Positions 7,152-33,743 of a DNA stretch of 64,000 nt are shown here, piece by piece (positions within the stretch are counted from its first letter, which is position 1; each line of letters opens with the position of its first letter). The notes under the pieces are model-generated. The model saw only the letters and a list, made by a program, of their open reading frames with translations. It did not search any database and had not been told where the DNA came from. The stretch is from Clavelina lepadiformis (Eukaryota > Chordata > Ascidiacea > Aplousobranchia > Clavelinidae). The DNA is taken from the NCBI RefSeq assembly GCF_947623445.1, contig NC_135248.1:9858977-9922976 (forward strand). Direction: 5' to 3'. The position numbers were made by a program, and so were the translations under genes.

Positions 7152-8932
7152 ATGTCTGTGGCTGGATCTGCCTTTGGTCCTATTACGGACGTATATCAAC
7201 AGGGAAACCTTCAACATTTCCAAGAGAATTGTCGGTATAATGGTGAGCTATAATTTTGTGTAGGTATATCAAAATGATTCCTTTTAGCACTTTCAAAACA
7301 CTATTTGACATAGTTAATATTAAGTAGAGCAAATCACCATACATTTACGTAATGTTCTCTACAGGTTGTTTTTGGTGAATGCTAGCAACTTTGTCTGGGC
7401 ATTTACTCTGACCTCAGTCATGTTGTAGCGCAAAATGTATGGAACGTAAAAATTATAAGAAATACCACGATGGTTAAGTTTATCTTTTAGTCAAGTATAA
7501 GCCTATAAGTTTAAGCAGATTACAATTGGCTACCAAGTTGACAAAAGTTGACATGGTGCCAGAAATAGCATAGCTGTCTTTAAGTCTTTCCAATTTGCTT
7601 CACTCAGTTAACATGTAGTTGATTTTGCAATATAGTTGTCTTTTATGGCTCCCAAAATTTTCATCAAAGGCCGCATGATTTCAAAATAAGGTTTAATTTA
7701 CAGAAAGGATTCCACCTAGTTTTAATATGATGCAACAAAGTGAGCAGAAGAAAAGTGTAGACAGACCACAGGTAAAAGAACAAGCGGTTATCGTATACTG
7801 TACTGCTATTTTGCCATTTACCTGCATACGCTTACAGACTTATAGACCCTTAAAGAGAGTATTATAGAAACATTTGTAACCTACACTAGGCATAATCTGG
7901 GGTTATACTAGATATTTACCGGTTAGGTACTTTATATGTGCAATATGATCAAATATGATCAATATGATCAATACATTTTCATTCTTTAAATACAGATTGC
8001 TTTGAGGAAATATGGAAAAGCATCGAAATCTATAAATAAGATCAAACTGTCTCGAAATGCTTCCATAAACAGCTGGAGTGGGTACCAGCAGCATTATTCA
8101 AATATGTCCACACACAGCCTTCCCATGCAGCAATATTATTCCGTTGATGCTTCCATCTCCTCCACACCTTATCCTTATTTTACAGTTCCGTGTCCTAATG
8201 GCACTATTTCTGCCAATGGACTGTTGAATCATTTCAGAATCGAAGATACGACGCAAGAGGAGCTTTTTCATGGCAATTGCCATAACTTTCAAAACAGCCA
8301 ACAAGACGGAAGTGACCTCAGTGATAATGACTGCGTAGCACCACTCTATCCGTGGATGAAACAACAGGGTATGTATCAATTGCTGGAAATCTGTTACATG
8401 TTACCATATACATGTCAGTGAGGTCAGGTGTTGTATATGTCCAACACATAGCTCCGTTAAAAATCAGATCTTTATGACAATTAAGATTAATTGTATTTGT
8501 TTTTTAATCAATGCGTTGCTTGTCGGTGTGGTGTAGGTTTGTGCCACATGATAATATGTTGGACGAGCTGCCGATAATCTTGAGAAAGATATTTGCGTAA
8601 AAAGTAACAGTTTTAAACAGATTCTATGCAAGAAAATTCACTTGCAGACATACGAAAAGAATTTAAAACATTGCCGTTGTTATATAGGTTCACATAGAAG
8701 ACGTGGAAGACAAACGTACTCCAGATATCAAACACTCGAACTAGAAAAGGAATTTCATTTTAATCGTTATCTCACTCGAAGAAGAAGGATTGAAATCGCT
8801 CACACCCTTGGACTCAGTGAAAGACAGATAAAAATTTGGTTTCAGAACCGTCGAATGAAATGGAAAAAGGAAAACAAAACTCTGCCATGTACAGGCGCAG
8901 AAAAACCCTTATCCAACAGCTCCAACACCTGA
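7152..8932 (+). CDS. Hox6: Hox6-type homeodomain transcription factor
   Basis: Proposed exons are 7152-7234, 8073-8368 and 8688-8932; phases agree and give 207 residues. The last two are strong. Exon 2 ends just after the hexapeptide core YPWMK (residues 120-124) at donor G|GTATGT, and exon 3 begins after ttatatag. The homeodomain is residues 130-189 (8696-8875), Antennapedia-like: [27 protein letters not shown] and [15 protein letters not shown] are visible. It then ends after about 18 residues. This is a sequence-specific nuclear DNA-binding protein of axial patterning; YPWM contacts PBC/Exd partners. The group (Hox6 versus Hox7/Antp) is inferred from RGRQTYS and from Ciona naming. Exon 1 (ATG at 7152, donor GTATAA) is tentative; without it the first in-frame ATG in exon 2 is at 8104, within an open frame from about 7996. 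Confidence 0.85.
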
Positions 8933-9151
8933 GCGTTATTATTTTTATAATCTTCAACAAAAAGTACAATGAGACCTTCAATGTTTAACTATAATAGACA
9001 AGCAACTGGTTATTGCTTGACAATGCTTTACGAAGGTATAGCACGAGACTAACCTAATTTTCCTCAATATCAGCAGCACGTTCAAAACTGAAAACATACT
9101 TAAACTGAAATCATATGGTCCAGGTTTTATTTTGCGTTTCATCGCTATAGC
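8933..9151. other. Hox6 3' flank
   Basis: Presumed 3' untranslated and downstream sequence. The last 8 bases, gctatagc (9144-9151), are the target-site copy of the next element. No clear AATAAA is seen before that element. Confidence 0.4.
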
Positions 9152-32300: not shown

Positions 32301-33743
32301 ATATAAGAATTGCTTAAAATGTTCGTAATACAAGGGCATTTATTACTAATTGCAATTAACACTTTTTAGCACATAAAACGAGGTGTTATTAGGGAGTAGA
32401 TAATTATCATTTTTGTGAAGGTTGTGGTTCGACCAAATGCAGGTAAAGAAACAAAAAATACCAGGTGATAAACGGCTTGTTTTACTAAACATAAATTAAA
32501 CTAATAAATGGGAGACTTAATCAATCTACTTTTGAAAGCTATGCAAAAACTTTAAAGTACATTAAATTAAAGTTCTTATAAAAATTTTTGCACTATTCAT
32601 AAAGTAAATCTGTGTCTAGGTGTAATAAGAATGATTTATAATAATTAATCATTCTGATGTTAAAGTTAAACAAAAACATACGAAATGAAAATGATGCATC
32701 AAAGTAAATTTCTAAACAGAGTCTCAAAGCAAAAAACGTAACGCTGTTTAAATATATAATTGCTTCAACAGAAATGTGGAAGTAACATCCGTACCTTCAT
32801 CGGTTGTTCCCTCCGCGACTTCCTCGGCTTTCTGACAAACATCATGCGAGAATAAACCGTCTTCTTTTTCCAATTTGTAATGCACTCCCGTTGCTATACC
32901 ATCCTCTTCTAACGCTGAAGACGCTCCAAAACTTCCTGGTACCCGCCGATCGTTAAGATTCTGCTTCCAGTCTGCCGTGGTCTTGCTCTTACACTCCGGA
33001 AGCGCATGACCTGGTACCCGCAACTGAGAATAAGAGTCGGCATGGATAACTTCATCTCCAGAGTTAAAGTGGTCATCTATTCCAACAGAGGGCTTTGTTA
33101 TGTGACTCGGAACTGTAAGCGATTCTTCAAACCCCTTCGGATTTGCATGAATGGGAATTTTATCGGAAATACTTTTATCGTATTCAGCTCGGTCATGATG
33201 CTGCTTTAAGTTTTTTTCTCCTCCATTTGTCGGACTTGTTCCACTTGATTTATGCATACCTTTTAAAGACGAGTCATTGTCGCCTCGAGTGTAACACTTT
33301 TCATTGGAGGCGGACTCGTAGTATTGCCTCGTTCTCAAGGCCTCTGGTATTGTAAACGTTGAAGTGGAAGAGTAGCAAAAATTGGCCGCGTTATTTTCTG
33401 GTATGGTCTCGAAAAGATTATTCGTTGGGAAATTTTTATCGTCTTGACCACTGTTATTTACGGGTTGTCGTTGCATTGTTCCTGAAATATTCGTCTCGTA
33501 AAGTTCGTGTGGTCTTTGTAAAATATCATTGATATTGCCTTGCTTATAGTGCATTAATGGTGTTGACCTCGATCTGTTATGAAAAACATCTAACGATTTT
33601 TCTTCAGATGATTTAACAATTTGGGAATCAAACGCTTTCGACATTCTTTCGGTCTTACAGCCGTACAAAGCGTTAACTCCCACCTGGTTATCAAGCTCTT
33701 TTCCAGGCAGGCTTGTTTCTTGCGCCGCGACTGACATTTCCAT
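29392..33743 (-). CDS. Hox10: Hox10-type posterior homeodomain transcription factor
   Basis: Exons: 33743-32795 (ATG; ends GAAG|GTACGG, phase 1), 30982-30849 (after aaactag; ends TTAGAG|GTACTC, phase 0) and 29892-29392 (after gcacacag). They join to 527 residues. Exon 2 starts [16 protein letters not shown], matching the NWLTAKSGRKKR lead-in of vertebrate Hox9/10. The homeodomain is residues 329-388: [27 protein letters not shown], then [20 protein letters not shown]. The following [10 protein letters not shown] parallels the Hox10 tail MNRENRIREL. The homeobox is split between homeodomain positions 33 and 34. Exon 1 (316 codons) is Ser/Asn/Glu-rich with no known domain. The C-terminus is His/Pro/Ala-rich with an AAALAAAAG run. 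Orientation is opposite to Hox5/Hox6. TTTATT at 29373-29378 could be a close polyadenylation signal. Confidence 0.92.

What the first reader, a model, noticed from the sequence alone, without database searches (positions are those of the whole stretch)
7152..33743. Hox6, Hox5 and an inverted Hox10 interrupted by an ion-exchanger gene
Within 27 kb the order is Hox6(+), Hox5(+), SLC24(-), Hox10(-). Hox6-Hox5 keep the ancestral order and strand. Hox10 is on the wrong side and in the wrong orientation, with a 17-exon unrelated gene in between and no Hox7-9. Ciona is known to have lost Hox7-9 and to carry a displaced Hox10; what this window adds is the exact neighbour content and the likely inversion interval, with one breakpoint between Hox5 and Hox10.
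Basis: partly seen in the sequence, partly recalled or inferred. Interest (0 to 1): 0.75.

Follow-up and report, generated by a model that had tools for sequence, protein, structure and literature searches.

The report
Flipped Hox6-Hox5-Hox10 trio in Clavelina
In the genome of the light-bulb sea squirt, three body-patterning Hox genes sit in the order 6, 5, 10 with Hox10 facing the other way, the same order reported for two distantly related sea squirts, which suggests one old chromosome flip in their common ancestor rather than a quirk of one species.

Summary
Contig lengths point to Clavelina lepadiformis (Aplousobranchia), chromosome 9. Hox10 has the four published PG10 residues and falls in the posterior Hox clade. 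Hox12, Hox13 and Evx (5.76-5.85 Mb) and Hox2-3-4 (15.20-15.24 Mb) lie on the same chromosome; Hox1 is on chromosome 7; my searches found no Hox7, 8, 9 or 11.

The order is not peculiar to this window: Halocynthia is published as X-5-10-12-13 and Ciona as 4-10-5-6. With Clavelina, 5 beside 10 appears in three suborders, and the strands equal what one inversion of the Hox5-Hox6 pair, with Hox10 left in place, would give. This favours one inversion in the ascidian ancestor (3 reversals against 4 or 5, Corella left out) over the published view that Hox10 moved only in the Ciona lineage. Corella, with Hox6 beside Hox10, is the contrary datum; with it the margin is 2 changes against 3. SLC24 is probably a later arrival. 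Ordinary genes, informative arrangement.

The parts
7152..8932 (+). Hox6 (PG6-8 central Hox), 4 exons 7152-7242, 7704-7771, 7996-8368, 8688-8932; hexapeptide YPWM; homeodomain in the last exon
   Evidence: spliced model with intact frame; homeodomain 1.0e-21 to PF00046; nearest PDB chain Antennapedia 6.4e-34; 90% identical to recalled human HOXA6 and HOXA7 homeodomains
12407..14677 (+). Hox5, 3 exons 12407-12664, 13364-13592, 14457-14677; hexapeptide YPWM
   Evidence: spliced model; PF00046 7.1e-21; 92% identical to recalled human HOXA5 homeodomain
17404..21222 (-). SLC24-type K+-dependent Na+/Ca2+ exchanger, conserved transporter exons; a possible N-terminal exon with a membrane segment reaches about 24265
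   Evidence: PF01699 3e-16 and 6.3e-7; TIGR00927 1.5e-72 on joined blocks; tblastn blocks 21204-21004, 20902-20834, 20468-20331, 17898-17461 with a recalled human NCKX; upstream exon (ORF) and exon number unverified
29392..33743 (-). Hox10, 3 exons 33743-32795, 30982-30849, 29892-29392; W motif NWLT before the homeodomain; intron inside the homeodomain after codon 33
   Evidence: spliced model; PG10 residues Gly1, Glu29, Leu32, Asp42 present (criteria from PMC5602962); best PDB match HOXA9 2.6e-25; posterior clade 96.9/95
14678..29391 (.). Hox5|Hox10 junction, 14,714 bp, Hox5 and Hox10 converging tail to tail with SLC24 between them
   Evidence: coordinates; no N in the window
38606..40468 (-). 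neighbouring heparan-sulfate 3-O-sulfotransferase-like gene (two of its exons), on the 5' side of Hox10
   Evidence: HS3ST3A1 chain 1t8t 1.4e-15; PF00685 5.7e-8; the exon at 40190-40468 gave no Pfam family and is assigned by eye
43069..45407 (-). neighbouring YME1-like i-AAA metalloprotease
   Evidence: PF01434 3.1e-19 and AAA 3.8e-11; the piece at 43069-43461 matches PF01434 below its cut-off (22.2 against 29.9 bits); yeast YME1 chain 6az0 3.2e-31, AFG3L2 8e-19

Best explanation
The trio is what is left of the central-to-posterior joint of the chordate Hox cluster after the loss of Hox7-9 and one inversion of the Hox5-Hox6 pair. Before it, reading from Hox1 towards Hox13, all genes lay on one strand: 4-, 5-, 6-, 10-. 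Cutting between Hox4 and Hox5 and between Hox6 and Hox10 and turning the piece over gives 4-, 6+, 5+, 10-. The window shows 6+, 5+, 10-. The new junction is Hox5|Hox10, tail to tail. Shown: the genes, strands and spacing here. Taken from papers: the orders X-5-10-12-13 (Halocynthia) and 4-10-5-6 (Ciona). Inferred: that these three share one event in the common ancestor of the ascidian suborders; that Ciona later turned the 6-5-10 block over; that SLC24 entered the junction later; and that the arrangement is tolerated because ascidian Hox genes are driven by local enhancers and need no cluster-wide temporal order.
For: Strands and order in the window. Published orders: Halocynthia HoxX-Hox5-Hox10-Hox11/12/13.a-.b, Ciona Hox10 between Hox4 and Hox5 with Hox6 about 3 kb from Hox5. 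Here Hox6 and Hox5 are 3.5 kb apart. Parsimony on the 5|10 adjacency as a binary character: with Clavelina, an ascidian ancestor that had it costs 2 changes against 3, on both tree shapes tried; without Clavelina 2 against 2; with Corella set to unknown 1 against 2. Reversal count over Hox2-4, 5, 6, 10 for Halocynthia, Ciona and Clavelina (Corella left out, strands not given in the text left free): 3 if the ancestor had 5|10, 4 if not, 5 for three separate origins. The 5-6-inverted order lies on a shortest path from the ancestral cluster to the Clavelina chromosome (1 + 4 = 5 reversals; Hox1 ignored, ancestral Evx strand recalled, other shortest paths not listed). Styela clava, which has no Hox6 in that study, is said to have an arrangement similar to Halocynthia (passages).
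Against: Corella inflata is reported with Hox6 and Hox10 homeoboxes 985 bp apart and Hox5 not linked, which fits an uninverted 5-6-10; it must then be a reversal or an assembly error. The parsimony margin is one step and rests on few taxa. Strands of Hox5 and Hox10 in Halocynthia and Ciona are in figures that I could not see, and Ikuta 2004 is not held. Botryllus has 8 of its 10 Hox genes on one scaffold, but the text gives no order. In Clavelina the Hox2-4 block is 5.3 Mb away, so the partner junction Hox4|Hox6 is not there to be seen; the 8 kb left of the window show no gene that I could recognise (by eye, no profile search).
Confidence: 0.62

Rival explanations
1. Hox10 alone moved and turned over to the 3' side of Hox5 in the ascidian ancestor, while Hox5-Hox6 stayed. 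This is the literal form of the reader's view, but ancestral.
For: It gives the same local picture and the same 5|10 adjacency in three suborders.
Against: In Halocynthia Hox10 is still next to Hox12/13, and in Botrylloides the three are linked, so Hox12/13 would have had to move with it. It needs an excision and reinsertion (or several inversions) where one inversion is enough.
Confidence: 0.15
2. Independent origins: Hox10 came to lie beside Hox5 separately in Ciona, in Clavelina and in stolidobranchs. DeBiasse et al. 2020 place the Hox10 translocation in the Ciona lineage only.
For: Ascidian clusters are much rearranged; Corella has Hox6 beside Hox10; the three Clavelina islands lie 4.1 and 5.3 Mb apart.
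Against: It needs 5 reversals against 3 (Corella left out) and one more change on the adjacency character. The Clavelina case is outside the Ciona lineage.
Confidence: 0.18
3. Misassembly joined unrelated pieces between 15 and 29 kb.
For: Raw reads and Hi-C could not be examined here.
Against: 0 N in the window; SLC24 blocks collinear across 17.46-21.2 kb; HiFi at 117-fold with contig N50 8.3 Mb (PMC10884593, passages); the same 5-10 neighbourhood is published for two other species.
Confidence: 0.02
4. The 29-33 kb gene is not a Hox9-13 member but a diverged central or non-Hox gene.
For: AU test does not reject a forced central placement (p = 0.066); homeodomain trees are weak.
Against: The four PG10 residues, W motif, posterior clade 96.9/95, best PDB match HOXA9, and a homeodomain intron between the published primer sites of Ciona Hox10 (primers translated by me).
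Confidence: 0.03

Closest known systems
Halocynthia roretzi Hox subcluster (Sekigami 2017, PMC5602962; sections 16 and 20 and passages read)
   Same: Order HoxX(6)-Hox5-Hox10; Hox2-3-4 kept together in one direction; NEBL near Hox4 (a nebulin-repeat match, 1.5e-4, lies 46 kb from Hox4 here, 1 of the 2 matches listed for the genome); nine Hox genes, no 7-9 or 11
   Different: There Hox12/13 follow Hox10 in the same subcluster and Hox1 is on the same chromosome. Here Hox12/13 are 4.1 Mb away and Hox1 is on chromosome 7. The pair Hox11/12/13.a/.b is called tail-to-tail there; here Hox12(-) and Hox13(+) diverge head to head. Of 85 and 89 sulfotransferase matches none lies near Hox4 here
Ciona Hox4-Hox10-Hox5-Hox6 on chromosome 1 (PMC2262895, PMC3707753; passages read)
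   Same: Hox10 next to Hox5, Hox5 about 3 kb from Hox6, intron within the Hox10 homeobox
   Different: about 332 kb between Hox10 and Hox5 there, 14.7 kb here; Hox4 next to Hox10 there; Hox12/13 on another chromosome there, same chromosome here; EvxA between Hox1 and Hox2 there, Evx 80 kb from Hox13 here
Corella inflata Hox6-Hox10 (DeBiasse 2020, PMC7337526; sections 23 and 28 and passages read)
   Same: Same nine-gene complement
   Different: Hox6 and Hox10 homeoboxes 985 bp apart, Hox5 not linked; the other end of the pair faces Hox10
Ancestral chordate cluster (amphioxus)
   Same: Hox6-Hox5 keep relative order and strand
   Different: One inversion, loss of Hox7-9 and 11, non-Hox genes between, cluster broken into islands

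Membership tests
Paralog group 10 Hox gene (29-33 kb) | Gly1, Glu29, Leu32, Asp42 in the homeodomain (criteria of PMC5602962) | tested here: met
   G, E, L, D at those positions; of the 23 recalled human homeodomains in that call only HOXA10 has all four
Paralog group 10 Hox gene (29-33 kb) | three Lys residues in the C-terminal flank (same paper) | tested here: inconclusive
   flank reads [10 protein letters not shown]; alignment register of the paper's figure not seen
Paralog group 10 Hox gene (29-33 kb) | falls in posterior Hox9-13 clade | tested here: met
   96.9/95 support, as sister to the other nine posterior sequences (85.3/74 for those nine); forced with HOXA10 p-AU 0.288, forced central p-AU 0.066
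Paralog group 5 Hox gene (12-15 kb) | closest to Hox5 homeodomains, YPWM motif | tested here: met
   92% to recalled HOXA5, 87% next; YPWM; no supported Hox5 group in the tree
Paralog group 6 Hox gene (7-9 kb) | groups with Hox6 rather than Hox7 or Hox8 | tested here: inconclusive
   90% to both HOXA6 and HOXA7; grouped with HOXB8 88/59. Named Hox6 by position, as in other ascidians
Ascidian Hox5-Hox6-Hox10 arrangement as in Ciona and Halocynthia | Hox5 lies between Hox6 and Hox10 | tested here: met
Ascidian Hox5-Hox6-Hox10 arrangement as in Ciona and Halocynthia | same strands and same junction neighbours as in Ciona and Halocynthia | not testable with these tools
   their genomes are not held; figures not held; Ikuta 2004 not held
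SLC24 (K+-dependent Na+/Ca2+ exchanger) | two Na_Ca_ex repeats and match to TIGR00927 | tested here: met
   TIGR00927 score 244.8 is below the cut-off of 710.1, only joined blocks were scanned

The most novel reading that the evidence does not exclude
The Hox5-Hox6 flip is an ancestral mark of ascidians (and perhaps of the whole enterogonan plus stolidobranch clade), and the enterogonan ancestor still had Hox2 to Hox13 and Evx on one chromosome. Then the loss of linkage of Hox12/13 and the displaced EvxA in Ciona are late, and the published reconstruction, which keeps 5-6-10 together in order until Ciona and finds no link of Hox12/13 to the rest, needs replacing.
Probability: 0.5. Interest if true: 0.7.

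Novelty: new variant of a known kind. Interest (0 to 1): 0.58.

Why it matters
How and when the ascidian Hox cluster fell apart is an old question limited by fragmented assemblies. The aplousobranch genome whose Hox genes I found described in print, Didemnum, was too fragmented for linkage (PMC8704543, passages). The searches listed no title on Hox order in Clavelina (listings cut at 15 of 23, 15 of 52 and 12 of 67; most listed papers were not opened), and the word Hox is absent from the Clavelina genome note. This map gives the missing suborder. It breaks the tie between an ancestral and a Ciona-only rearrangement, and it shows an enterogonan with Hox12/13 and Evx on the chromosome of most other Hox genes. 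It also offers clean predictions on strand in Halocynthia, Styela and Ciona.

Tried and rejected
miR-10 as a breakpoint marker: no Rfam match at gathering threshold in the window and five Hox loci; the recalled mature miR-10 sequence has 2 hits at 3 mismatches in the genome, equal to the 2 of the reversed-pattern control. STAC next to Hox2: the STAC2_u1 profile found nothing here or in any control, so uninformative. The window's sulfotransferase as the published 'CHST' next to Hox4: it resembles HS3ST, none of the matches to two sulfotransferase families lies near 15.2 Mb, and identity with the Ciona gene is untestable here. Inverted 200-bp repeats on both sides of Hox6 (3796-3988 and 9152-9345) as a cause of inversion: they belong to a dispersed family (40 matches listed, all at 92% or more, only 40 of 674 first-look candidates scored), and Hox6 is not inverted relative to Hox5, so no special role is claimed. 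The first homeodomain tree had one sequence shifted by a residue and is replaced; the identities of the other sequences are not affected. Annotation of the rest of the window: 14 of 20 ORFs scanned gave no Pfam family at 0.01 (4 of 10, 10 of 10). Papers opened without use for gene order: PMC6836712 (only a reference matched), PMC8293171, PMC12448946.
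Full report
Observation. The window lies at contig 9, 9,858,977-9,922,976, of a 209-Mb genome in 95 contigs. The homeodomain profile finds Hox6 and Hox5 on the plus strand and a split Hox homeodomain on the minus strand. Between Hox5 and Hox10 lies an SLC24-type exchanger on the minus strand. The window contains no N.

Species. Eight of the nine large contig lengths were seen: 28.784, 26.530, 25.735, 24.617, 20.772, 20.449, 19.510 and 15.726 Mb. They match the chromosome table of Clavelina lepadiformis kaClaLepa1.1 (28.79, 26.54, 25.74, 24.62, 20.77, 20.45, 19.51, 15.73; PMC10884593, passages read) to about 0.01 Mb. 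The held copy has 95 contigs and 209.06 Mb against 102 scaffolds and 210.1 Mb in the paper; I cannot account for that difference. The window is therefore most likely on chromosome 9 of an aplousobranch ascidian, not Ciona.

Identity of the genes. Window Hox5 is 92% identical to the human HOXA5 homeodomain and Hox6 90% to HOXA6 and HOXA7 (human sequences recalled). Hox6 cannot be separated from groups 7 and 8, as in other ascidians. Hox10 carries Gly1, Glu29, Leu32 and Asp42, the four residues used for PG10 in PMC5602962, and a W motif. It matches HOXA9 best among solved structures (2.6e-25). In the tree it joins Hox9-13 with 96.9/95 support, as sister to the other posterior sequences rather than beside HOXA10 (p-AU 0.288 when forced there). 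A forced central position is disfavoured but has p-AU 0.066. Its homeobox intron lies between the published primer sites for Ciona Hox10 (primers translated by me).

The rest of the Hox set. On the same chromosome: Hox12(-) at 5.7586 Mb and Hox13(+) at 5.7707 Mb, Evx(-) at 5.8515 Mb, Hox2(-) 15.202, Hox3(-) 15.217, Hox4(-) 15.242 Mb. Hox12 groups with human D12 (88.2/98) and Hox13 with A13/B13 (82.6/94); the Hox13 gene also matches HOXB13 best among solved structures (1.4e-18). Hox1 is on contig 7 at 17.16 Mb in two exons. Cdx, Xlox and Gsx are on contig 1 at 10.85, 23.13 and 5.26 Mb. Searches with Hox1 and Hox10 homeodomains (40 and 27 matches) showed no further gene that I recognised as Hox, so the set found is 1-6, 10, 12, 13, the same nine as in Ciona, Corella and Halocynthia. 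One of the two nebulin-repeat matches listed for the genome (E 1.5e-4) lies 46 kb from Hox4, in line with the NEBL neighbour of Hox4 in Ciona and Halocynthia.

What the arrangement means. Published orders are Halocynthia X-5-10-12-13 (PMC5602962, sections 16 and 20 and passages) and Ciona 4-10-5-6 (PMC2262895, passages; Hox6 about 3 kb from Hox5). DeBiasse et al. (PMC7337526, sections 23 and 28 and passages) inferred from Corella (Hox6 and Hox10 homeoboxes 985 bp apart) that Hox10 moved after the Ciona lineage split off, and saw no evidence in enterogonans linking Hox12/13 to the rest. Clavelina is outside the Ciona lineage on both tree shapes discussed in that paper. It has Hox5, not Hox6, facing Hox10, and has Hox12/13 on the same chromosome. 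One inversion of the Hox5-Hox6 pair in the collinear cluster gives the window's order and strands, and leaves Hox10 beside Hox12/13 as in Halocynthia; Hox10-12-13 are also linked in Botrylloides (PMC5882950, passages). The adjacency character costs 2 steps if ancestral and 3 if not, on both trees; without Clavelina the two are tied at 2. Counting reversals over four blocks and three species (Corella left out, strands not given in the texts left free) gives 3, 4 and 5 for ancestral, non-ancestral and threefold origin. The margin is small and depends on text statements about other species. Styela (PMC8122590, passages) is said to resemble Halocynthia but has no Hox6 there; for Botryllus (PMC12448946, passages) the text gives no order.

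SLC24 and neighbours. Sekigami et al. state that STAC-Hox2-3-4-CHST-NEBL is the only conserved neighbourhood of Hox genes that they saw between Halocynthia and Ciona. If so, SLC24 and the HS3ST-like gene next to Hox10 are not shared junction genes between those two, and are best read as later arrivals in the Clavelina lineage. I could not test this in other genomes.

How it may work. Hox5 and Hox10 converge with SLC24 between them, and SLC24 follows Hox10 on the same strand. [quoted passage not shown] A 14.7-kb spacer holding a separate gene, and development in ascidians without cluster-wide timing, would lower both costs. This is inference; no expression data were available.

Limits. Only one genome was at hand; supplementary files and figures were not readable; trees rest on 60 residues; human sequences were recalled; only about 50 of 116 homeodomain matches were read.

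Noticed in passing
G000 contig 9, 5,758,570-5,851,549 (L009, L034, L011): Hox12(-), Hox13(+) and Evx(-) lie within about 93 kb in the ancestral order 12-13-Evx. Hox12 and Hox13 are transcribed away from each other, whereas a Halocynthia paper calls its pair tail-to-tail.
   Followed up: partly
G000 contig 7, 17,156,620-17,158,414 (L054, L055): Hox1 is on a different chromosome from the other eight Hox genes found, unlike Ciona, Halocynthia and Styela, where it is reported on the chromosome of other Hox genes.
   Followed up: partly
window 470-785 and 2327-2640: Long inverted repeats (87-96% complementary) with about 1.5 kb between them that holds a minus-strand ORF of 164 aa without a Pfam match; looks like a small transposable element.
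   Followed up: no
window 3796-3988 and 9152-9345: Inverted copies of a roughly 200-bp dispersed repeat on either side of Hox6; 40 copies at 92% identity or more are listed for the genome, a lower bound.
   Followed up: yes
window 55691-56626: Single 311-aa open frame on the plus strand without a Pfam family; looks like a one-exon membrane protein gene.
   Followed up: no
G000 contig 9, 15,288,499-15,288,582 (L056): Nebulin-type repeat 46 kb from Hox4; a YME1-like gene is in the window. By recall the human NEBL and YME1L1 genes are both on 10p12, so the Hox chromosome may carry part of another ancient linkage group.
   Followed up: no
G000 contig 5, 8.8145 Mb (L040): Mox/Meox-like homeobox gene (identified by eye), which flanks Hox1 in vertebrates and amphioxus, is on contig 5, away from the Hox genes found.
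   Followed up: no
G000 contig 1, 5.26, 10.85 and 23.13 Mb (L018, L020, L022): The three ParaHox genes Gsx, Cdx and Xlox share one chromosome but are megabases apart.
   Followed up: no
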